NCBI GenBank assembly: GCA_016213785.1
Contig: JACQZQ010000109.1
Span: forward strand, 62,001 to 126,000
Direction of reading: 5' to 3'
Length of the DNA: 64,000 nt
Source: Acidobacteriota bacterium
Lineage (GTDB): Bacteria; Acidobacteriota; Blastocatellia; Chloracidobacteriales; JADJPF01
Shown here: piece after piece, positions 26,844 through 36,881 of the stretch
Layout of the letters: each line of letters begins with the position of its first letter
How positions within the stretch are numbered: position 1 is the first letter of the stretch
Made by a program: the position numbers and the translations under genes
Notes under the pieces: model-generated
The model's database searches: none
Seen by the model: the letters and a program-made list of their open reading frames with translations, nothing else
Told to the model about the DNA's origin: nothing

Positions 26844-27653
26844 ATGAGATGGTTTAAGAAAAAGAAAAAACAACATATAGCAATTACTAAAATCGAAGGA
26901 GTAATTGCAGATGGGCTTGAAGCCTCATCAGGCCGAGAAGAAGTTATCGAATCCTTAAAACAGGCTGAAGAATATGAAGTTAAAGCATTAATTGTTCGTA
27001 TTAATAGCCCTGGTGGTACAGTAGGAGCATCACAGGAAATCTATCAGGCAATAAAAAGGGTTAGGGAAAAAGGTATTCCTGTAGTAGCCTCATTTGGCGA
27101 TGTAGCTGCTTCTGGAGGCGTTTATGTAGCTATGGCTGCTAATAAAATAGTCTCTAACCCTGGAACTATCACAGGATCTATTGGAGTTATTATTAAGTCT
27201 AATAATTTAACTGAGTTATATAGCAAAATAGGTGTTAGCGCTCAAGTTATAAAATCTGGAAGCCATAAAGATATTTTAGCTAGTTATCGGCCTTTAACAG
27301 AAGAAGAGCGTGAGCTTTTACAATCTACAATTGATGATACTTACTTGCAATTTGTTGAAACAATTGCAGATGGTAGAGGTTTATCTGTAGATGAAGTAAA
27401 ACCCTTCTCAGATGGACGAATTTTTTCTGGTAGACAGGCAAAAGACCTTAAGTTAGTTGATGAATTAGGCGGACTACAAACTGCAATTAATGTAGCTAAA
27501 GACTTAGCAGGAATTGAAGGTGAGCCTAAGTTGTTACACTTAGAACCAGAAAAAACTTGGCGTGAAACCCTCTTAGGGCCATTTGCTAAAGTAGCTAATC
27601 ATTGGCAAATAGGGACTCAAATGCATGGCATCCCTCTTTGGTTAATGCCTTAA
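26844..27653 (+). CDS. sppA: SppA-type serine protease without membrane anchor
   Basis: A 269-residue S49-family peptidase. Nucleophile Ser90 sits in SFGDVAASGGVYVAMAA and general base Lys142 in SGSHKDILASYRP, the Ser-Lys dyad of signal peptide peptidase A. VRINSPGGTVGASQEIYQ precedes it. The family degrades cleaved signal peptides at the membrane. Most SppA proteins have an N-terminal transmembrane helix; here the protein begins MRWFKKKKKQHIAITKIEG with a lysine-rich stretch and no hydrophobic helix, so it may bind the membrane peripherally or act in the cytoplasm. The McrB start follows 19 bases downstream, which suggests possible read-through. Confidence 0.85.
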   Translation: MRWFKKKKKQHIAITKIEGVIADGLEASSGREEVIESLKQAEEYEVKALIVRINSPGGTVGASQEIYQAIKRVREKGIPVVASFGDVAASGGVYVAMAANKIVSNPGTITGSIGVIIKSNNLTELYSKIGVSAQVIKSGSHKDILASYRPLTEEERELLQSTIDDTYLQFVETIADGRGLSVDEVKPFSDGRIFSGRQAKDLKLVDELGGLQTAINVAKDLAGIEGEPKLLHLEPEKTWRETLLGPFAKVANHWQIGTQMHGIPLWLMP

Positions 27654-27672
27654 CTAATTGTATTTAATAGAT

Positions 27673-29286
27673 ATGGCATTTTCTGGATTTAGCCCAAAAA
27701 CCTTTAAGTTTTTAAGTGATCTAGAGGCTAATAACCAAAAAGACTGGTTTAGTAGCCATCATCTAGATTTTATTAAAGAAGTCGATCAGCCTTTAAGAGC
27801 TTTAATTAAAGAACTTGAGCCTTTTTTCCTTAGTCACTCTAGTGATCTAGAAACTTCTGCTAAAACAGGAAAAACCCTATCAAGAATTAATAAAAATATT
27901 TTTGGTCATAAAGAAACAGGACTCTATAACACTAGTTATTGGGCAGCTTTTTATCGTAAAACTTATAAAAAACAAACCGACCTCCAACTTTTCCTAGGAC
28001 TTAGACCCACTGGCTTTCAAATAGGGCTTTATGCTAGCCATCGTGCAGAAAATTTATTAACTAAATTTAGGAACTATATTGCTAGTAATAAAACTCGCTT
28101 TTTTAGCTTAATAGAAAACCTACGATTTCCAATAAATATTTTTACTGAAGAAACATTGTCTCAACCGTTAAAAATAGGATCTTTAGACGATCTTGAATTC
28201 TTAAATCAAGGAAAATGTTTAGCCATATTAAGGTCTTTTTCAAGCGATGATGAGACATTATTTTCCTCTAATTTGCTCTTTAGGATAGAAGAAACTTTTG
28301 ATAGCCTGCTGCCACTTTACAAACAAATTATCTCAGACCTGTCAAGCCCTTTAGAAATTGATGAAGTAATTGAAATTGAAGGAGATAATGAAATAGAAAT
28401 TACCTATGATGTTGAAGACTTAAAACAAGAAACATATTTAGAAGAAGATTTTATTAAACAAATTTTTAATTTACTAAATCATAAAAAACAAATAATTTTC
28501 TATGGCCCTTCAGGAACAGGTAAAACCTTTATTGCTGAACACTTTGCCCAATATTTTATAAATGGGAAAGGTGAATATAAAATAATTCAATTTCACCCTT
28601 CATATTCTTATGAAGATTTTATTGAAGGTATACGACCCGAAACTATACCTACACAAAGCGGTCAGTCAACTCTTTCTTATCAAGTTCTAGATGGCTTATT
28701 TAAGCAATTTTGCCAGAAAGCAAGATCAGGCAATAAAGATAGTAAGTTTGTATTAATTATTGATGAAATAAATAGAGGAAATCTAACTAGGATTTTTGGA
28801 GAGCTACTTTATTTACTAGAATATAGAAATAATATAATTGAGCTACCTTATTCAAAAAAAACATTTAATATTCCTCCTAACCTTTATATCATTGGAACAA
28901 TGAATATAGCAGATCGCTCTATTGCTTTAGTTGACCATGCATTAAGACGAAGATTTCATTTTATTTCATTAAATCCTGATGCTAATGTGCTAAGGAAATT
29001 TCTTAGAGAACATGCTATAGAACAAGTTTGGATTGCAGACTTATTAGTTAAATTAAATCAACAGCTTACTAGTCATGGTATTAGTCGAGAGTATCATATT
29101 GGACATAGCCATTTTATGTCACGTAACATAGATTTTACTCAACTACAATTAATTTGGGATTTTACTATTCTTCCAACTATTGAAGAATTTTTTTATAACC
29201 GTCCAGATCTATTAGCTAAGTATTCACTAGCAGAACTATCTAGAGGATTAATTGATCAAACATTGTTATCAACTCTTAGAACATAG
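27673..29286 (+). CDS. McrB-like AAA+ GTPase with N-terminal DUF2461 domain
   Basis: The frame is open from TTG at 27658, but ATG at 27673 gives the usual DUF2461 start FSGFSPKTFKFLSDLEANNQ, so 537 residues are predicted. Residues 3-215 match DUF2461 (TIGR02453-like). After an acidic linker, residues 250-520 are an McrB-type AAA+ domain: Walker A GPSGTGKT at 278-285, Walker B LIIDEINRGN at 361-370, and the McrB signature MNIADRS at 410-416 followed by HALRRRF. McrB translocates DNA with GTP and activates the McrC nuclease of type IV modification-dependent restriction. mcrC overlaps the 3' end by 35 bases. The N-terminal domain is not the methylcytosine reader of E. coli McrB, so the target is unknown. 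Confidence 0.82.
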   Translation: MAFSGFSPKTFKFLSDLEANNQKDWFSSHHLDFIKEVDQPLRALIKELEPFFLSHSSDLETSAKTGKTLSRINKNIFGHKETGLYNTSYWAAFYRKTYKKQTDLQLFLGLRPTGFQIGLYASHRAENLLTKFRNYIASNKTRFFSLIENLRFPINIFTEETLSQPLKIGSLDDLEFLNQGKCLAILRSFSSDDETLFSSNLLFRIEETFDSLLPLYKQIISDLSSPLEIDEVIEIEGDNEIEITYDVEDLKQETYLEEDFIKQIFNLLNHKKQIIFYGPSGTGKTFIAEHFAQYFINGKGEYKIIQFHPSYSYEDFIEGIRPETIPTQSGQSTLSYQVLDGLFKQFCQKARSGNKDSKFVLIIDEINRGNLTRIFGELLYLLEYRNNIIELPYSKKTFNIPPNLYIIGTMNIADRSIALVDHALRRRFHFISLNPDANVLRKFLREHAIEQVWIADLLVKLNQQLTSHGISREYHIGHSHFMSRNIDFTQLQLIWDFTILPTIEEFFYNRPDLLAKYSLAELSRGLIDQTLLSTLRT

Positions 29287-30454
29287 CCAAATAACAGATA
29301 TTGATCTAACCCTAGAAGATCTAAATATGCTTTTAGCTTTGTTTATAGGTAAGCTAGATGTTAGCCCTAGTCTTACTACTGGTAAATATAATTTACAATC
29401 CCATCAATATGTAGGAGTAATTTCTCTTCCCAATACCAAAATAATTATTGAGCCTAAGACTAAGATTACTAACTTAAACTTTATGATTTCAAAGGTTTAT
29501 AACTTAGTTCGTTGGCAAGAAAATAAAATGGCTCAAATTGGTACTATTAAAGAGTGGAGCAATTTTGTTTTACTCCTTTTTTTGGATTCTCTTAAAGAGC
29601 TTATTATAAAAGGGCTTAATCAAACTTTTCAGGAAGTAAAAGAAAATTCTACTTCAATTAAAGGAAGTATTGATTTTGTTAAACAAGCTAAAGAAAATTT
29701 TGGCTATAACCTACAACATTACTGCAATTTTACAGAAGTTACAGCTAATACAATAGAAAATCAAATACTTAAACTAGCTCTTAGTAAAATTTATGCTATT
29801 GATGAGCTAGAAAATAGTCTAATCTGGGAATTGAATAAATTAGAAAAGTATTTTGCTAATGTTAGTTTACCTAATTTATTTACAATTAATTTTTCTAACC
29901 TAACTTTTAACCGCTTAAATCAAGCCTATCAAGAACCTATTGCACTTGCACAAATGATTTTAGAGATGTCTAGTCCTTCGCTTGAAGGTTTGTCACATTT
30001 TTTTCCAGCTTTTTTAATAGACTTAAATCGACTATTTGAGCGCTTTGTAGCAAACCAACTTGCTCAAAGCTGTAATGATTACAATAAGTTAAATAAAATC
30101 AATAAATTAATATTAAGTTATCAGATGCAAGTATTTTTAGATACTGAAAATAAAATTAAAATAATTCCTGATTTAATTTTAAGTTATGGTGAAAAGACTT
30201 TAGCGGTAATAGATACAAAATATAAGCTAGCTAGTAGTGAGCTTAATAGGGATTATTATCAGATAATTAGTTACTCTTTAGCGCAAAATGCTATTTATGG
30301 TGTGTTAGTTTATCCAAATTGGGAAAAACCAAAAGATATTTTTTATATTAAAAATAGCAAAGTAAAGATTTTATGTCTTGAAGTAGTGATGAATAAAGGG
30401 GTTAAAGAACTTAACAGTAGTATAGAAACAGTACTTGAAACCGTTATAGCATAA
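29252..30454 (+). CDS. mcrC: McrC-like PD-(D/E)xK nuclease subunit
   Basis: A 400-residue protein starting at a TTG inside the end of the McrB gene; the first ATG in frame is at 29327 and would remove the leading YQLLEH strand. The N-terminal part (PSLTTGKYNLQSHQYVGVI) and middle helices match McrC. The C-terminal nuclease core is intact: IIPDLIL with Asp307 and VIDTKYK with Asp321 and Lys323, a PD-x-DxK arrangement. McrC caps the McrB hexamer and cuts DNA when translocation stalls. The overlapping start argues for coupled translation and fixed stoichiometry. No methyltransferase lies close by, as expected for a type IV system. Confidence 0.83.
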   Translation: MIKHCYQLLEHSQITDIDLTLEDLNMLLALFIGKLDVSPSLTTGKYNLQSHQYVGVISLPNTKIIIEPKTKITNLNFMISKVYNLVRWQENKMAQIGTIKEWSNFVLLLFLDSLKELIIKGLNQTFQEVKENSTSIKGSIDFVKQAKENFGYNLQHYCNFTEVTANTIENQILKLALSKIYAIDELENSLIWELNKLEKYFANVSLPNLFTINFSNLTFNRLNQAYQEPIALAQMILEMSSPSLEGLSHFFPAFLIDLNRLFERFVANQLAQSCNDYNKLNKINKLILSYQMQVFLDTENKIKIIPDLILSYGEKTLAVIDTKYKLASSELNRDYYQIISYSLAQNAIYGVLVYPNWEKPKDIFYIKNSKVKILCLEVVMNKGVKELNSSIETVLETVIA

Positions 30455-30615: not shown

Positions 30616-32406
30616 ATGACCTTATTTCTATTATTCAATCAGATTTTAAGAGAAACAAAGATAGAACCTGCTTTAGAAGAAGCTCTAACAATAGAGAGGT
30701 TTGAGTTTAAGATAAAGATACTGGTGCTTTTAATTTTAGTATCACTCTCTTTTATACTAGCCCTTCGCAGAATAGAACTTAAAAGATTTGAAAAACTCTT
30801 TAATAAAATAGCTATAAGGAAAAACCTTGTAATTTTATTAATAGCTATTTTTACTTTCTTAGGTAACTTAGCTATGGCTAAGTTTTTTTATTGGCCTATT
30901 CCTAAAATACATGATGAGTTTAGTTATTTATTAACTTGCGATACTTTTGCGCATGGAAGGTTAACAAATCCTGCACATCCTTTGTGGGAGCATTTTGAAA
31001 CTTTTCATATAACACCTTTTCCAACCCGTGCTTCAAAATTTCCACCAGCACAAGGCTTGTTTATGGCAATAGGACAAGTCTTAACAGGAGATCCAATAGT
31101 TGGCATATGGCTAAGTATGGCTCTAGCTTGTGCTGCAACTTGTTGGATGTTACAAGCTTGGGTGCCTCCTCGTTGGGCAATGTTAGGTGGGATTTTAATG
31201 GTGTTTAACTTAGGCTGGTTTACTTATTGGACTCAAAGTTACTGGGGAGGTGCTGTAGCTTTATTTGGAGGAGCATTAGTCTTTGGGGCTTTACGAAGAA
31301 TAATTAAAAAACCTCAAGTTAGTCATTCTTTGCTCTTTGCTTTGGGTTTAGCCATACTGGTTAATAGCAGACCTTTTGAAGGATTTATAACAGGTTCTTT
31401 TGCTATAGCAATGCTATTTTTTTGGATTACAAAAAAAACTCTCTCATTAAAAACTATTTTTCAACAAATAGTCTTACCTTCAGCCATAGTTTTAACTCTA
31501 GTAGTTCTTATAATGGGCTATTATAACTATCGCGTTACTGGTAGTTGTTTTAAGTTACCCTATCAAGCTTATGAATCGGTTTATAATAATCTTTCTAACT
31601 TTATTTGGGTAAAACCTGAAACACGACTAATAACATATAATCACAAAGAGTTTGTAGATTTTTATAATGTTTGGTATCCAAACACTTTTAAGAAAAACTT
31701 TAACCCCAATTTTAATTTTCCATTTGCTTTAGAAAAACTACAAGACTTATTTATTTTTTTTCTAGCTACCCCGCTAAATATTTTTTTGCTTGCTCTATCA
31801 CGAGCAATAAAGAACTCTTGGGTTGTTTTTTCTCTTATAACCATTGGAGTGTTGTTATTTGCCGTTTTGCAAGTGGTAGTTGCCTTAACACACTATGTAG
31901 CGCCTGGAGTTTGCCTACTTTATTATGTGCTTATTCAATGTATGCGCTATGTTTATCTTTGGCGTTGGAAGAAAAAACCCATAGGAAAATTTCTTGTCTG
32001 GTCAACACCGATTTATTATTGCTCTATGATTTTTCTGTTACTATTTAATAGTATTAACCCCTCTTTAGTATTAGGGTTTGACCCGTTAAGAACTGATAGA
32101 TACAATAAAAATGATTGGTCAGTTGTACGTAATGATTTAGTCAGGTTTTTAAATAATCAAGAAGGGGAAATTTTAATTTTAGTTACATACTCTAAAAATC
32201 ATATTTTCCATGAAGAATGGGTTTATAATGATGCAGATATAGATAACGCAAAAGTAGTTTGGGCACGTTCTATGAGCAAAGAAAAAGACTGTAACCTTGT
32301 AAAATACTTTAAGGATCGTAGAATATGGAGGTTAAAAGTATTACAGGGACGAGATATTGAACTTCTTCCCGATGTTAGTTTAGAAACTGTCTGCCCAAAA
32401 GATTAG
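30616..32406 (+). CDS. GT-C-like polytopic membrane protein
   Basis: A 596-residue protein with about ten to twelve hydrophobic helices. Between the second and third helices is IPKIHDEFSYLLTCD with Asp100-Glu101, placed like the catalytic acidic motif of GT-C glycosyltransferases (ArnT/PMT, GT39 and relatives), then PTRASKFPPAQGLFMAIG. The C-terminal 90 residues are soluble. Such enzymes use a lipid-linked sugar donor at the periplasmic face. I do not recognise a precise family; Acidobacteriota contain many similar uncharacterised proteins. It lies head to head (convergent) with a four-gene sugar operon, suggesting a role in surface glycan assembly. Confidence 0.6.
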   Translation: MTLFLLFNQILRETKIEPALEEALTIERFEFKIKILVLLILVSLSFILALRRIELKRFEKLFNKIAIRKNLVILLIAIFTFLGNLAMAKFFYWPIPKIHDEFSYLLTCDTFAHGRLTNPAHPLWEHFETFHITPFPTRASKFPPAQGLFMAIGQVLTGDPIVGIWLSMALACAATCWMLQAWVPPRWAMLGGILMVFNLGWFTYWTQSYWGGAVALFGGALVFGALRRIIKKPQVSHSLLFALGLAILVNSRPFEGFITGSFAIAMLFFWITKKTLSLKTIFQQIVLPSAIVLTLVVLIMGYYNYRVTGSCFKLPYQAYESVYNNLSNFIWVKPETRLITYNHKEFVDFYNVWYPNTFKKNFNPNFNFPFALEKLQDLFIFFLATPLNIFLLALSRAIKNSWVVFSLITIGVLLFAVLQVVVALTHYVAPGVCLLYYVLIQCMRYVYLWRWKKKPIGKFLVWSTPIYYCSMIFLLLFNSINPSLVLGFDPLRTDRYNKNDWSVVRNDLVRFLNNQEGEILILVTYSKNHIFHEEWVYNDADIDNAKVVWARSMSKEKDCNLVKYFKDRRIWRLKVLQGRDIELLPDVSLETVCPKD

Positions 32407-32424
32407 TATTTTTATTAGTTATAA

Positions 32425-33528
32425 CTAACTATAGAACTCTTTTATCATAGAACAAGTATATTGAATTTGTTCTTGTGATAATTCTGGGAACATTGGTAGA
32501 GAAACTATTTCCTCAGCAAAAGCTTCTGTTATTGGGAAAGCACCTTTTTGATAACCTAAATCACTATAGGCTTCTTGCAAATGTATAGGTACAGGATAAT
32601 GAATTATTGTAGTAATACCTTTTTCTAAAAGAAATTTTTGCAGTTTTTCACGCTCTTTTACCCTAACTACATATAGATGAAAAATATGATCGCGGTCTAA
32701 AGCTATTTGAGGTGTTTTTACTTCTTCAAGGTCTGAGAGATATTCACTGTAGAGCTTTGCATTGTAAGCTCGTTTAGAGTTCCATTCTGTTAAATACTTA
32801 AGTTTTACATTTAATACAGCCGCTTGTAAGGTGTCAAGCCTATTATTTAAGCCTTTTTCTGAATGATAATATTTTTGTTTCTGCCCATAATTACGTAAGC
32901 GTGAAATTTTTGCTGCTAGGTTTTTATCTGCTGTAACTATAATTCCAGCATCACCATAAGCTCCTAAATTTTTTCCTGGATAAAGGCTAAAACACCCTAT
33001 TTTACCAAAAGTCCCTGTAGAAAAACCGTTGTAATGTGAGCCATGAGATTGAGCAGCATCTTCAACAATTTCTAAATTATGTTTTTTGGCAATATCAATA
33101 ATTGCTTTCATATCAGCAGCTTGACCATAAAGATGAACTGGCATAATTGCTTTTGTTTGTGCTGTTATAGCATCTTCTATTAAGCTAGTATCAATATTGT
33201 AAGTTTTTGTATTAATATCAACTAAAACAGGTTTTGCACCAACAGCAGAAACCGCAAGCGCTGTAGCAATAAAGGTATTAGCTGGTATAATGACTTCATC
33301 TTTATAGCCTATACCTAATACTTCTAAAGCGATTTTTAAGGCATCCAAGCCATTACTTACACCAATTGCATAGTCTATACCAATAAATTTAGCAAAATTC
33401 TTCTCAAACTCTTCTACTTCCTGTCCAAGAATAAAATTGCAGTTTTCAAGTACATTGGATATAGCTTGATTAACTTCTGTTTTAATACTTTTATATTGTG
33501 CTTTTAAGTCTACAAAAGGTACTTGCAT
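32425..33528 (-). CDS. DegT/DnrJ/EryC1 sugar aminotransferase
   Basis: A 367-residue PLP-dependent nucleotide-sugar aminotransferase. VPFVDLKAQYKSIK starts the fold, VSNGLDALKIAL and IPANTFIATALA bind the cofactor, VEDAAQSHGSHYNG gives the PLP-stacking region, and the Schiff-base lysine is Lys186 in LYPGKNLGAYGDAG. It transfers an amino group to a keto sugar (FdtB/QdtB or WbpE type). It is the last gene of an operon read leftwards: oxidoreductase, acetyltransferase, glycosyltransferase, aminotransferase. A second, clearly divergent paralogue lies at 49.8 kb. Substrate could be a dTDP-3-keto-deoxyhexose or UDP-3-keto-GlcNAcA. Confidence 0.87.
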   Translation of the reverse strand: MQVPFVDLKAQYKSIKTEVNQAISNVLENCNFILGQEVEEFEKNFAKFIGIDYAIGVSNGLDALKIALEVLGIGYKDEVIIPANTFIATALAVSAVGAKPVLVDINTKTYNIDTSLIEDAITAQTKAIMPVHLYGQAADMKAIIDIAKKHNLEIVEDAAQSHGSHYNGFSTGTFGKIGCFSLYPGKNLGAYGDAGIIVTADKNLAAKISRLRNYGQKQKYYHSEKGLNNRLDTLQAAVLNVKLKYLTEWNSKRAYNAKLYSEYLSDLEEVKTPQIALDRDHIFHLYVVRVKEREKLQKFLLEKGITTIIHYPVPIHLQEAYSDLGYQKGAFPITEAFAEEIVSLPMFPELSQEQIQYTCSMIKEFYS

Positions 33529-33529
33529 A

Positions 33530-34270
33530 TTATTTCTTTATTCTCATTGCTAATAAAAATATTGGACGTAAAATGCTCCACCAACCAATTATAGGCTTCA
33601 TTTTTGTATAACCTAATTCTTTTGGAGGATAAATTTTAGTAACAGGGACTTCCTTAAAACTATACCCAAGCCTTATGGCTTTATACATTATGTATGGTTC
33701 TAGCTCATACTTATCTAACCAAGATTGGTCAATATTTATTTGTTTGTCAGAAAAAATAGATAACCTTATGGCTCTAAAACCATTAGTACTATCTGTAACC
33801 CATTTACCTGTGGCTATTGAAAAAAGTAGTGGATGTATTTTAGTAGCAATCCGCCTATAAAAAGGCATATTACCATAAATCCCCCCTGGCAAATAGCGTG
33901 AGCCTTGTACAAAATCATAACCTTCTTGACTAATTGGCTCTAGGAGTTTTGGGATCTCGCTTGGACGGTCTTTATCATTGCCAGCTAGGATAACTATAAC
34001 ATCAAAACCTTTATCAGAAGCATACTTTATAGCCGTTCTAATAGCTGCTCCAACCCCTTTTTGGGAAGAATGGCTAATAAGATTAGCACCTCTTTGTTTA
34101 ACTATTTCAGGAGTACTATCTGTAGAAGCATCATCTATAACTAAAATTTCATCAACCAAACCTTCTGTAAATCTATCTAGAACAGAGCCTATTTTTTTTT
34201 CTTCATTAAAAGCCACTGGAACAGCTAGAACTTTAAGGTTTTTAGGTGTGGTAGAAGTGATGGAACTCAT
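33530..34270 (-). CDS. Family 2 glycosyltransferase, DPM1-like
   Basis: A 246-residue GT-A glycosyltransferase. LAVPVAFNEEKKIGSVLDRF opens the Rossmann-like domain, VDEILVIDDASTDST gives the donor-binding DDA motif, and DVIVILAGNDKDRPSEIPKL carries the later acidic site. No long hydrophobic segment is present, so it resembles soluble dolichol/polyprenol phosphate sugar synthases, or a short glycosyltransferase working on a lipid carrier. Its ATG overlaps the stop of the acetyltransferase gene (ATGA) and it ends one base before the aminotransferase start, so the operon is tightly packed. The transferred sugar is probably the amino sugar made by its neighbours. Confidence 0.82.
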   Translation of the reverse strand: MSSITSTTPKNLKVLAVPVAFNEEKKIGSVLDRFTEGLVDEILVIDDASTDSTPEIVKQRGANLISHSSQKGVGAAIRTAIKYASDKGFDVIVILAGNDKDRPSEIPKLLEPISQEGYDFVQGSRYLPGGIYGNMPFYRRIATKIHPLLFSIATGKWVTDSTNGFRAIRLSIFSDKQINIDQSWLDKYELEPYIMYKAIRLGYSFKEVPVTKIYPPKELGYTKMKPIIGWWSILRPIFLLAMRIKK

Positions 34271-34827
34271 TTTAAGATTACTTTATTTTCTATTTTTTGG
34301 TATTTACAACCACATTGACATTCAGAAAAATCTAAATCAAAAACAAGCTTTTTAGCACACTTACAAACCCATCCATGACTACGAGATGGATTACCATAAC
34401 AAAGACTATAATCTGCAACATTACGAGTTATTACTGATCCTGCTCCAATCATTGCATATTGCCCAATAACCACACCACAAACAATAGTTGCATTAGCCCC
34501 TATTGTAGCGCCCTGTTTTATTAAAGTTTCAACAATTTGCCAATCACTTTTCTTACTTCTAGGCCATAAATCATTGGTTAACACAGCATTTGGGCCAATA
34601 AACACATCATCCTCAATTATAACTCTATCCCATAGACTTACCCCATTTTTAATAGTAACTCTACTACCTATTATTGCCCCTGATTCTACAAAGCTATGGT
34701 CACAAATATTACAGTCTTCTCCTATTTTGGCTCCCTTCATAATATGGGAATATGCCCAAATACGGGTGCCTTGGCCTATTTCATCGCTTTCTACCAAAGC
34801 TGTTGGGTGCTTAAAAAAATTTGCCAT
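34267..34827 (-). CDS. Left-handed beta-helix sugar N-acetyltransferase, WbpD-like
   Basis: A 186-residue hexapeptide-repeat protein. Repeats such as AKIGEDCNICDHSFVESGAI, VTIKNGVSLWDRVIIEDDVF and [20 protein letters not shown] form the left-handed helix. The same fold and order are found in WbpD, which N-acetylates the 3-amino group of a UDP-sugar acid. The last 30 residues contain six cysteines (WVCKCAKK ... CQCGC) that could form a zinc ribbon. Oxidoreductase and aminotransferase partners flank it. The start is 4 bases after the preceding stop, indicating coupled translation. Confidence 0.83.
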   Translation of the reverse strand: MANFFKHPTALVESDEIGQGTRIWAYSHIMKGAKIGEDCNICDHSFVESGAIIGSRVTIKNGVSLWDRVIIEDDVFIGPNAVLTNDLWPRSKKSDWQIVETLIKQGATIGANATIVCGVVIGQYAMIGAGSVITRNVADYSLCYGNPSRSHGWVCKCAKKLVFDLDFSECQCGCKYQKIENKVILK

Positions 34828-34830
34828 TGA

Positions 34831-35850
34831 TTAATTAACCTCTATGGCCTTTCCATGCTCTTTTAAGGACTGTTGTATTGCCTCTAGGACTTTTACTACA
34901 TCTAGCCCACTATTTCCATCAGAGACATCTACTCTACCTTTTTTGATTGCATTAAGAAAATACTTTGCTTGGTTCTTAAGAGGTTCTTCTAGTTTAACTT
35001 TGGGGATAATTATATCGCCTTCGCGGGCTAGAAGATGAAAATGTCCATAATCATCATAATATGGCTCTCTAACTACACCTTTATCAAAAACTTGTATAGG
35101 GCCAATGGTAGCTAAATCATCCCAAAGTACCATTTTTTTATCACCAACAATAGTAATTTCTCTTACTTTACGAGGATCTAGCCAAGAAACATGAACACGT
35201 GCAAGAACATTATTAGGATAGCGCATAGAAATAAAGGCAAGATCCTCAATGTCTTTTTGTAAAAAGGATTCACCTACAGAAGAAACTTCAAAAGGCTTAC
35301 TTCCTAATAAAAAATTAAAAATCGCAATATCATGCGAAGCTAAATCATAAACAGCATTTACATCTTGGCGTATTGGGCCTAAATTAGTCCTAGTTGAACC
35401 AATATAATAAATTCTACCTAAGTCATTAAATTCTAAATATTCTTTTAATTTAAGAATTCCATTGTTAAAGAGAAACACTTGTCCAACCATTAAAACCAAA
35501 TTGGCTTCTTTAGCTAATTTAACAAGCTCCTGTCCTTGGCTTGAGCTTTGACAAAGAGGTTTTTCTACTAAAACATGTTTTCCTGCTAAAAGGGCATTTT
35601 TAGTTATTTCATAATGGGTTAGAGTCGGTGTAGCAATTATTACAGCATTAATATCTTTATCATTTAATATTTCTTGATAATCTTTTACTAACTTAATATC
35701 AGGATAAAGCTTACCAATATTATTAAGTCTTTCTACATTTAAATCTGATACCATAGATATTTTGACTGAAGGCGTAGTAGAAAATACACGTACATGATTA
35801 GGCCCCCAATGACCAGCCCCTATAATACCCAATTTAATTTCATTACTCAT
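34831..35850 (-). CDS. Gfo/Idh/MocA oxidoreductase, WbpB-like
   Basis: A 339-residue NAD(P)-dependent sugar oxidoreductase. LGIIGAGHWGPNHVRVF is the Rossmann GxGxxG strand, VIIATPTLTHYEI and GKHVLVEKPLCQ follow with the EKP motif, and DLASHDIAIFN contains the H-D catalytic pair. The family oxidises a sugar hydroxyl to a ketone (WbpB/WlbA oxidise UDP-GlcNAcA at C3). It is the first gene of the operon that continues with the acetyltransferase and aminotransferase, the three steps of the diacetamido uronic-acid pathway. UDP-GlcNAc dehydrogenase (WbpA) is not seen in the window, so another keto-sugar substrate is possible. Confidence 0.85.
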   Translation of the reverse strand: MSNEIKLGIIGAGHWGPNHVRVFSTTPSVKISMVSDLNVERLNNIGKLYPDIKLVKDYQEILNDKDINAVIIATPTLTHYEITKNALLAGKHVLVEKPLCQSSSQGQELVKLAKEANLVLMVGQVFLFNNGILKLKEYLEFNDLGRIYYIGSTRTNLGPIRQDVNAVYDLASHDIAIFNFLLGSKPFEVSSVGESFLQKDIEDLAFISMRYPNNVLARVHVSWLDPRKVREITIVGDKKMVLWDDLATIGPIQVFDKGVVREPYYDDYGHFHLLAREGDIIIPKVKLEEPLKNQAKYFLNAIKKGRVDVSDGNSGLDVVKVLEAIQQSLKEHGKAIEVN

Positions 35851-35960: not shown

Positions 35961-36881
35961 TTAATTTGAAACGCAAACGCGGTTACGGCCTGAGGTTTTA
36001 GCCCGATATAGAGCTTCATCAGCACGTTTAAGAATATCTTCGCCATCGCTTGTTGTATCGCCTTCATATTCAGCTACACCTATACTAATAGTAACCTGTC
36101 GGCGACAACCTAAAGATTCAAAATTAACATTTTCTACTGCGGTACGAATACGCTCTGCAACAACAACAGCCCCACCTAAATTAGTTTCTGGTAGTAGCAT
36201 AACAAATTCTTCTCCTCCAAAACGCGCTGCAACATCATGGTTACGAACATGGCGCATTAGGACTTCTGAAACGCCTTTTAGCACATTATCACCAACATCA
36301 TGACCATAGGTATCATTAATTTTTTTAAAGAAATCTATATCAAGCATAATTATTGATAAAGCACGATTATAACGAACAGCTAAGGAGACAAATTTTCTAA
36401 GTTCATTACGGAAATAGTTACGATTTGATAAAGCGGTTAGAGGATCGCGGGTAGCTTGTTGGTAGAGTTTATCGTGGTAAGAAACATCTAGACGATCTTT
36501 GATCTCAAATTTTAATATGGTGTCGCCAACTTTAATTTTATCACCGCTCCTAAGTTCTTGCTCATAAGCACGAACACCATTAACAAAAATACCATTTTTA
36601 CTGCTAAGGTCAGCTACCTTAGCACGCGCTTCACCCTTATGATTTTTAATCATATAAAGCTTTAAGTGTTTACGTGAAACTTTTTCATCGTCTAATTGAA
36701 TATCAGCCTCATCACTGCGGCCTAGAACCATTTCAGGCTTTTCTAAAAGAAAAACGCGACCAAAATCCGCGCCTTCAATTACTGTAAAGTAGAAACCCTC
36801 TGAGCCTGTAAAACTAGTCCACTCAGACATCTGAAATTCTATTGTTTGATCACCAAAAGCCTTTGTATCCTTCTTTTCCAT
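35961..36881 (-). CDS. FHA-GGDEF diguanylate cyclase
   Basis: A 306-residue cytoplasmic signalling enzyme. Residues 30-125 form an FHA domain: GRSDEAD at 54-60, SRKH at 69-72 and SSKNG at 93-97 bind phosphothreonine. The GGDEF domain follows, starting RDPLTALSNRNYF, with active-site GGEEF at 222-226 and an intact inhibitory site RNHD (213-216) five residues before it. It should make cyclic di-GMP from GTP and be inhibited by its product. The FHA domain suggests control through a Ser/Thr kinase. No kinase is adjacent. It is the last gene of its transcript on the minus strand. Confidence 0.9.
   Translation of the reverse strand: MEKKDTKAFGDQTIEFQMSEWTSFTGSEGFYFTVIEGADFGRVFLLEKPEMVLGRSDEADIQLDDEKVSRKHLKLYMIKNHKGEARAKVADLSSKNGIFVNGVRAYEQELRSGDKIKVGDTILKFEIKDRLDVSYHDKLYQQATRDPLTALSNRNYFRNELRKFVSLAVRYNRALSIIMLDIDFFKKINDTYGHDVGDNVLKGVSEVLMRHVRNHDVAARFGGEEFVMLLPETNLGGAVVVAERIRTAVENVNFESLGCRRQVTISIGVAEYEGDTTSDGEDILKRADEALYRAKTSGRNRVCVSN

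What the first reader, a model, noticed from the sequence alone, without database searches (positions are those of the whole stretch)
27673..30454. DUF2461-McrB with McrC: type IV-like defence with a new sensor domain
McrB motifs and an intact McrC nuclease (PD-x-DxK) are present, but the N-terminal DNA recognition domain is replaced by DUF2461, a domain of unknown function. The target modification or invader signal may be different from methylcytosine.
Basis: partly seen in the sequence, partly recalled or inferred. Interest (0 to 1): 0.7.

Follow-up and report, generated by a model that had tools for sequence, protein, structure and literature searches.

The report
McrBC restriction system carrying DUF2461 domain
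This is an intact, rare two-gene bacterial DNA-cutting defence system of the known McrBC type, in which the usual DNA-reading part of the motor protein is occupied by an uncharacterised domain (DUF2461) that also marks a scattered, apparently undescribed branch of McrBC systems across bacteria and archaea.

Summary
Confirmed: window 27673-29286 (+) encodes DUF2461 (Pfam E=2e-25) fused directly to an intact McrB GTPase, and 29252-30454 encodes an intact McrC. It is not a one-off: 25 other loci carry the same DUF2461-GTPase core, in Cyanobacteriota, Chloroflexota, Planctomycetota, Verrucomicrobiota, Armatimonadota, Rhodothermota, Myxococcota and archaea. The fused domains form one clade apart from the standalone DUF2461s sampled. 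McrC follows wherever downstream sequence suffices (22 loci), and some relatives abut BREX, DISARM-like or Type III restriction genes.

Outside this genus, DUF2461 is a constant module between other N-terminal domains (often EVE, sometimes Mrr_N) and the GTPase. Only this genus (two species) has the minimal DUF2461-GTPase form, where DUF2461 is the sole candidate reader. AlphaFold gives it the YktB/DUF1054 fold (Z 17-19). The next most similar solved structures, in two models, are E. coli McrB's 5-methylcytosine-flipping domain, but only at Z about 6 and without sequence support. The target is unknown. Best filed as a new variant of McrBC (Type IV-like) restriction; no paper describing it was found in the library searched.

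The parts
27673..29286 (+). mcrB-like gene, 537 aa: DUF2461 + McrB AAA+ GTPase (alternative TTG start at 27658 adds 5 aa)
27697..28323 (+). DUF2461 domain (aa 9-217), predicted YktB/DUF1054 fold
   Evidence: Pfam 90.4 bits; hhalign; AF2 pLDDT 84, pTM 0.83; VIA Z 18.9 to 2a8e
27883..28026 (+). Most conserved stretch of the fused domain (aa 71-118): R71 K74 N75 G78 Y89 W90 A92 Y94 K96 Q105 G118
   Evidence: alignment of 22 fused domains; R71 is nearly invariant, the others invariant
28402..29223 (+). McrB GTPase domain (aa 244-517)
   Evidence: PDB 6hz4 E=1e-49, NF008457
28504..28527 (+). Walker A GPSGTGKT (aa 278-285)
   Evidence: sequence, invariant core
28750..28776 (+). Walker B VLIIDEINR (aa 360-368)
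   Evidence: sequence
28903..28914 (+). McrB signature NxxD (N411 I A D414)
   Evidence: sequence; N411 and D414 invariant
29252..30454 (+). mcrC gene (TTG start), 400 aa; overlaps mcrB by 35 bp
   Evidence: PF10117 E=4.9e-51, NF007277
30170..30220 (+). PD-(D/E)xK active site of McrC (D307 ... D321-T-K323)
   Evidence: invariant in 19 McrCs
26844..27653 (+). S49 (SppA-like) protease gene ending 19 bp upstream of the mcrB ATG, same strand; membership in the system uncertain
   Evidence: PF01343 E=1.6e-54, SppA_dom; same arrangement in L003/L086; no S49 gene recurs beside the other fused loci

Best explanation
A two-gene McrBC-type restriction system. McrB is a GTP-driven AAA+ ring motor and McrC its activator and PD-(D/E)xK nuclease, presumed to cut foreign (probably modified) DNA. 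It belongs to an apparently undescribed McrB subclass in which a DUF2461 domain of YktB/DUF1054 fold sits immediately before the GTPase. In most members that domain is preceded by variable readers such as EVE or Mrr_N. In this genus those modules are absent, and DUF2461 is the only domain left that can contact the target, so I take it to be the DNA-contacting reader here. Shown: domain identity, intact catalytic motifs, operon, conservation, family breadth, defence neighbours of relatives. Unknown: which DNA or modification is read. Confidence about 0.97 that it is an intact McrBC homologue, 0.85 that it is a defence system, 0.5 that DUF2461 is the target reader in this protein.
For: Pfam, NCBIfam and PDB matches. 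Invariant GTPase and nuclease residues across phyla. McrC follows in all 22 loci with enough downstream sequence. Relatives stand beside BrxHI and BrxD (L098), a Type III Res subunit (L091), DrmB (L095) and a second DUF2357-PDDEXK nuclease (L117). Sparse distribution: 1 of 396 Acidobacteriota and 1 of 400 Chloroflexota genomes sampled, one copy on a Leptolyngbya plasmid, typical of mobile defence genes. The domain evolves faster (dN/dS 0.24) than the GTPase (0.10), as expected of a recognition part. Fused domains form one clade apart from standalone ones (99/98). E. coli McrB-N structures rank next after the DUF1054/PF0168 structures in two independent models.
Against: In 21 relatives DUF2461 is constant while other N-terminal domains vary, which fits a coupling or structural role at least as well as a reader role. 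The McrB-N resemblance is only Z about 6 and has no sequence-profile support: shuffled and reversed decoys score as well or better. The fused domain is acidic in 21 of 22, although ADAM domains also span pI 4.7-9.0. The window's own neighbours are housekeeping and polysaccharide genes, not a defence island. No activity data.
Confidence: 0.5

Rival explanations
1. DUF2461 is not a reader but a constant adaptor that couples variable N-terminal sensors to the GTPase ring (positioning, oligomerisation or GTP recognition). The window protein has lost its sensors and relies on non-specific DNA contact or on another protein.
For: All 21 fused relatives outside the genus have extra N-terminal modules before DUF2461: EVE in 11, modules A, B and C in 8, 8 and 5, Mrr_N in 2. 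Invariant residues within the fused domain are shared whatever sensor precedes it. In E. coli and Thermococcus McrB, elements just upstream of the AAA+ core contribute to GTP recognition (PMC7680126).
Against: The window and sister species lack any sensor module, yet both genes remain under purifying selection, so a sensor-less protein is evidently useful. DUF2461 evolves faster than the GTPase.
Confidence: 0.35
2. DUF2461 is a remote relative of the E. coli McrB-N (ADAM/DUF3578) domain and flips a modified base out of DNA. The GxG loop would correspond to the Y41 finger and the W90/Q105 strands to the W49/Y64 pocket region.
For: After the DUF1054 and PF0168 structures, McrB-N entries fill ranks 4-11 (Z 6.0-6.4, 127-138 residues, about 4 A) for the window domain and ranks 3-6 and 8-14 (Z 5.7-6.2) for a Chloroflexi domain. 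By eye the strand order and the 15-residue W-to-Q and W-to-Y spacing agree. Y64, L68 and Y41 are the known McrB-N contacts (PMC3874153).
Against: Z is under 8; YbjN and secretion chaperones score nearly as high (5.2-5.9). Profile comparison P=0.047 fails decoy controls. No residue-level superposition was available here.
Confidence: 0.3
3. A truncated, decaying McrBC remnant that lost its reader modules and no longer works.
For: It is the shortest architecture in the family (537 aa against 640 or more) and lies outside a defence island.
Against: All catalytic motifs of both proteins are intact; dN/dS is 0.16 and 0.23; the same minimal form is kept in a second species at 81% identity.
Confidence: 0.05
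4. A three-gene system in which the upstream S49 (SppA-like) protease works with McrBC.
For: The gene ends 19 bp before mcrB, same strand, in both species; it is an additional short copy, since the host has a separate 601-aa SppA and the sampled relatives only long SppA.
Against: No S49 gene recurs beside any other fused McrBC. Shared position in two close species may be plain synteny.
Confidence: 0.08

Closest known systems
E. coli K-12 McrBC (Type IV restriction, DUF3578/ADAM reader)
   Same: McrB AAA+ GTPase with Walker A, Walker B and NxxD; adjacent McrC with PD-(D/E)xK nuclease; two-gene operon
   Different: The N-terminus is DUF2461, not DUF3578; the GTPase lies far from E. coli McrB in the tree; target unknown
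EVE-McrB systems (Bell et al. 2020, PMC7641849)
   Same: About half of the DUF2461-McrB relatives carry an EVE domain before DUF2461
   Different: The window protein has no EVE domain; DUF2461 is not mentioned in that paper's text
Other McrB homologues with exchanged N-terminal domains (T. gammatolerans YTH, H. pylori LlaJI.R1 B3)
   Same: Same principle: a conserved motor with divergent DNA-binding N-termini (PMC7680126)
   Different: Fold and sequence of the N-terminal domain differ
CoCoNuTs (PMC11090510)
   Same: McrBC-derived GTPase and nuclease
   Different: CoCoNuT GTPases have an NxD motif; here NxxD, and McrB and McrC are short simple proteins
Standalone DUF2461 (PF09365/TIGR02453) and DUF1054/YktB (2a8e, 3mqz)
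   Same: Homologous domain over its full length; same predicted fold
   Different: Standalone copies carry no motor; the family signature is degenerate in the fused form (window RINKNIFGHKETGLY)

Membership tests
McrBC family | McrB-type AAA+ GTPase with Walker A, Walker B and NxxD | tested here: met
McrBC family | Adjacent McrC with PD-(D/E)xK nuclease residues | tested here: met
McrBC family | GTP-dependent, modification-dependent DNA cleavage | not testable with these tools
   needs biochemistry
E. coli-type McrB (DUF3578/ADAM) | DUF3578 (PF12102) N-terminal domain detectable by sequence | tested here: not met
   The Pfam scan of the isolated domain gives DUF2461 and one weak chance family only; hhalign against ADAM not significant
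E. coli-type McrB (DUF3578/ADAM) | Same three-dimensional fold as McrB-N | tested here: inconclusive
   Z 5.7-6.4 in two models
EVE-McrB | EVE domain in the McrB protein | tested here: not met
   No EVE match in the window protein, present in 11 of 21 relatives
CoCoNuT | NxD GTPase motif | tested here: not met
   NxxD (N411-I-A-D414); definition from PMC11090510
DUF2461 (PF09365) | Score above the Pfam gathering threshold over the whole domain | tested here: met
   90.4 bits against 22.8, model 1-207 of 208
DUF2461 (TIGR02453) | Score above the curated TIGR02453 cut-off | tested here: not met
   68 bits against 105.4: a divergent member
DUF2461 (signature) | Signature RxxRDxRFxxx[DN]KxxY (recalled from memory; seen in most standalone rows) | tested here: not met
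   Window reads RINKNIFGHKETGLY
YktB/DUF1054 fold | Same fold by structure comparison | tested here: met
   2a8e Z 18.9 over 200 residues at 2.7 A; second model Z 16.7

The most novel reading that the evidence does not exclude
DUF2461, and by fold the uncharacterised DUF1054/YktB and PF0168 families, are nucleic-acid (modified-base) readers remotely related to the McrB 5-methylcytosine-flipping domain. The DUF2461-McrB subclass would then combine a constant base-flipping reader with a second variable reader (EVE, Mrr_N), a two-key recognition scheme reduced to one key in this genus.
Probability: 0.25. Interest if true: 0.7.

Novelty: new variant of a known kind. Interest (0 to 1): 0.5.

Why it matters
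It gives the first functional context for DUF2461, a common domain of unknown function (181 of 396 Acidobacteriota genomes sampled), and ties the fold of solved but unexplained DUF1054/YktB structures to a DNA-targeting motor. It also defines a McrB subclass with one constant and several exchangeable N-terminal modules, so the question of what reads the invader can be tested by comparing the minimal form here with EVE-containing forms, for instance on the plasmid of the cultured cyanobacterium Leptolyngbya boryana.

Tried and rejected
1) Sequence-profile homology of DUF2461 with ADAM/DUF3578: P=0.047, but column shuffles reach the score 4/120 at best and a reversed decoy scores higher; dropped as evidence. 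2) Host C5-methyltransferase avoidance as a clue to the target: absent in the window genome and its sister but present in 12 of 22 genomes with fused McrB against 30 of 58 relatives; no signal. 3) Isoelectric point as a DNA-binding argument: fused domains acidic, standalone basic, but ADAM domains range 4.7-9.0, so not discriminating; the six-frame ORF control was uninformative. 4) Viral contigs: many McrBs but no fused DUF2461; none in annotated phages. 5) Search for DUF3578 (PF12102) in Acidobacteriota and in several cyanobacterial and other genomes gave nothing, but no control rang either, so nothing is concluded. 6) Recurrent operon partners other than McrC: none. 7) PADLOC has no model that names this system; McrB matched only partial REase_II models. 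8) Nostoc CENA543 McrB (P0005) looked like a fusion by tblastn but has no DUF2461.

Full report
OBSERVATION. The window lies in a 6.4-Mb genome (132 contigs, 96% complete). Its only same-genus neighbour in the set, G001, matches the contig of a Blastocatellia (Acidobacteriota) MAG. ORF 27673-29286 (+) encodes 537 aa: DUF2461 at aa 9-217 (Pfam 90.4 bits, E=2e-25, model 1-207 of 208) joined to a McrB GTPase (aa 244-517; E=1e-49 to E. coli McrB 6hz4). Walker A, Walker B, NxxD and the arginine cluster are intact. ORF 29252-30454 (+) overlaps it by 35 bp and encodes McrC (PF10117 E=4.9e-51) with the catalytic D307/D321-T-K323 set invariant in 19 homologues.

CONSERVATION. The same SppA-McrB-McrC order is found in G001 (L003/L086). 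Between the two species dN/dS is 0.06 (SppA), 0.16 (McrB) and 0.23 (McrC); within McrB it is 0.24 for DUF2461 and 0.10 for the GTPase. The genes are maintained, and the N-terminal domain changes faster than the motor.

IS IT REALLY DUF2461? Yes, as a divergent member. The Pfam threshold is passed; the stricter TIGR02453 threshold is not (68 against 105.4 bits). Profile-profile comparison of 22 fused domains with 17 standalone ones gives P=8.6e-18 over 211 columns. The signature seen in most standalone rows (RIYRDxRFxxDKxPY) is degenerate in the fused ones (window RINKNIFGHKETGLY). Invariant in the fused set are E60, K74, N75, G78, Y89, W90, A92, Y94, K96, Q105 and G118.

FAMILY. The scan of 84,980 species genomes and the plasmid search brought in 25 other loci with this core (L086-L105, L113, L114, L116, L117, L030). 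A few are cut by contig ends or broken in frame (L089, L092, L093, L105, L113). Hosts: Chloroflexota, Cyanobacteriota, Planctomycetota (L095, the nearest outside the genus, 43% identity), Verrucomicrobiota, Armatimonadota, Rhodothermota, Myxococcota, Lokiarchaeota and another archaeon. The 22 fused domains form one clade against the standalone ones sampled, all of them from Acidobacteriota (99/98). On a GTPase tree the fused label needs 4 changes against 20.8 for shuffled labels. The window, L086 and L095 group together, and a large clade (99) holds most others plus a few McrBs of Nostoc, Calothrix and one Blastocatellia genome (G017) without the domain. Distribution is sparse: 1 of 396 Acidobacteriota and 1 of 400 Chloroflexota genomes, whereas standalone DUF2461 is common (181 of 396). 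No fused copy was found in viral contigs or phages.

ARCHITECTURE. This changes the interpretation. In all 21 fused relatives outside the genus that could be read, more sequence precedes DUF2461: EVE (11), unnamed modules A (8), B (8) and C (5), Mrr_N (2) and others. DUF2461 is therefore the constant part next to the GTPase, and the other modules vary. The window genus has the minimal form, since the upstream gene ends 19 bp before the McrB start. 'Replacement of the recognition domain' describes this protein but not the family.

CONTEXT. McrC is the only recurrent neighbour, in all 22 loci with enough downstream sequence. Relatives stand beside BREX genes BrxHI (E=1e-216) and BrxD (4e-133) in L098, a Type III restriction Res gene (3e-183) in L091, DISARM-type DrmB (5e-85) in L095, and another DUF2357-PDDEXK nuclease in L117. 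This supports a defence role by association. The window's own surroundings are not a defence island.

FOLD. AF2 models of the window domain (pLDDT 84, pTM 0.83) and of the L102 domain (pLDDT 93, pTM 0.90) both match DUF1054/YktB structures: 2a8e Z 18.9 and 16.7, 3mqz Z 16.2 and 15.2 (Foldseek E 3e-5 and 1e-5). Next come PF0168 (1yb3, Z 8.5, window model only) and then nearly a dozen entries of the E. coli McrB DNA-binding domain (Z 5.7-6.4). That the nearest further structures are McrB's own reader, in two models only about 22% identical, is suggestive. But Z is under 8, unrelated folds reach 5.2-5.9, and sequence profiles give no support once decoys are used. It is recorded as a lead.

TARGET. 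The host and its sister lack C5-cytosine methyltransferases (PF00145) but have several N4/N6 enzymes. This would be compatible with a 5mC-type target, but 12 of 22 other hosts do carry C5 enzymes, the same rate as relatives without the system (30 of 58). No inference about the target is justified.

MECHANISM. By homology (E. coli and Thermococcus McrBC; PMC7680126, PMC6624300), McrB should form GTP-hydrolysing hexamers activated by McrC, whose nuclease cuts DNA. These steps are inferred from intact motifs. That DUF2461 contacts the target in this protein is inferred from position, absence of any other N-terminal domain, faster evolution and weak fold similarity. The main rival is that it is a constant adaptor.

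KNOWN OR NEW. DUF2461 occurs in only 3 papers of the library by that name, none of them on McrB. The McrBC census (PMC11090510) does not mention it in its text; its supplements could not be read. I file it as a new variant of a known kind: motor and nuclease are McrBC; the N-terminal domain and the subclass appear undescribed.

Noticed in passing
window 26844-27653 (+): Short S49 (SppA-like) protease gene 19 bp upstream of mcrB, kept in the same place in the sister species; an extra copy, as the host has a 601-aa SppA elsewhere.
   Followed up: partly
window 30616-35850: A 596-aa probable membrane protein and polysaccharide-type genes lie between mcrC and the FHA-GGDEF gene (35961-36881). In L086 the FHA-GGDEF gene follows mcrC directly, so about 5.5 kb was gained here or lost there.
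   Followed up: partly
L031 2598-4411; L035 1733-5129: Nostoc and Calothrix plasmid McrB operons without DUF2461 have a separate small gene (EVE domain in Nostoc) and a large GNAT-family gene upstream; their McrBs group near the DUF2461-McrB clade, suggesting domain loss or split.
   Followed up: partly
L102 aa 1-245 and 393-560; L103 aa 1-225 and 226-430: Four recurrent N-terminal modules of these McrBs (called A, B, C, D here) gave no Pfam name in the scan (the full table was shown for L102 only; DUF7664 hits two members); possibly new reader domains.
   Followed up: no
L007, L008, L009: Standalone DUF2461s of Blastocatellia with a variant signature (SRI.ND.RF) form a branch apart from the other standalone copies and are the nearest standalone relatives of the window domain.
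   Followed up: partly
L117 5693-7333: A second McrC-like protein (DUF2357 + PDDEXK_7) stands just downstream of a DUF2461-McrB/McrC pair.
   Followed up: no
L036-L085: About 50 viral contigs carry McrB-like GTPases, many with long inserts within the GTPase stretch.
   Followed up: no
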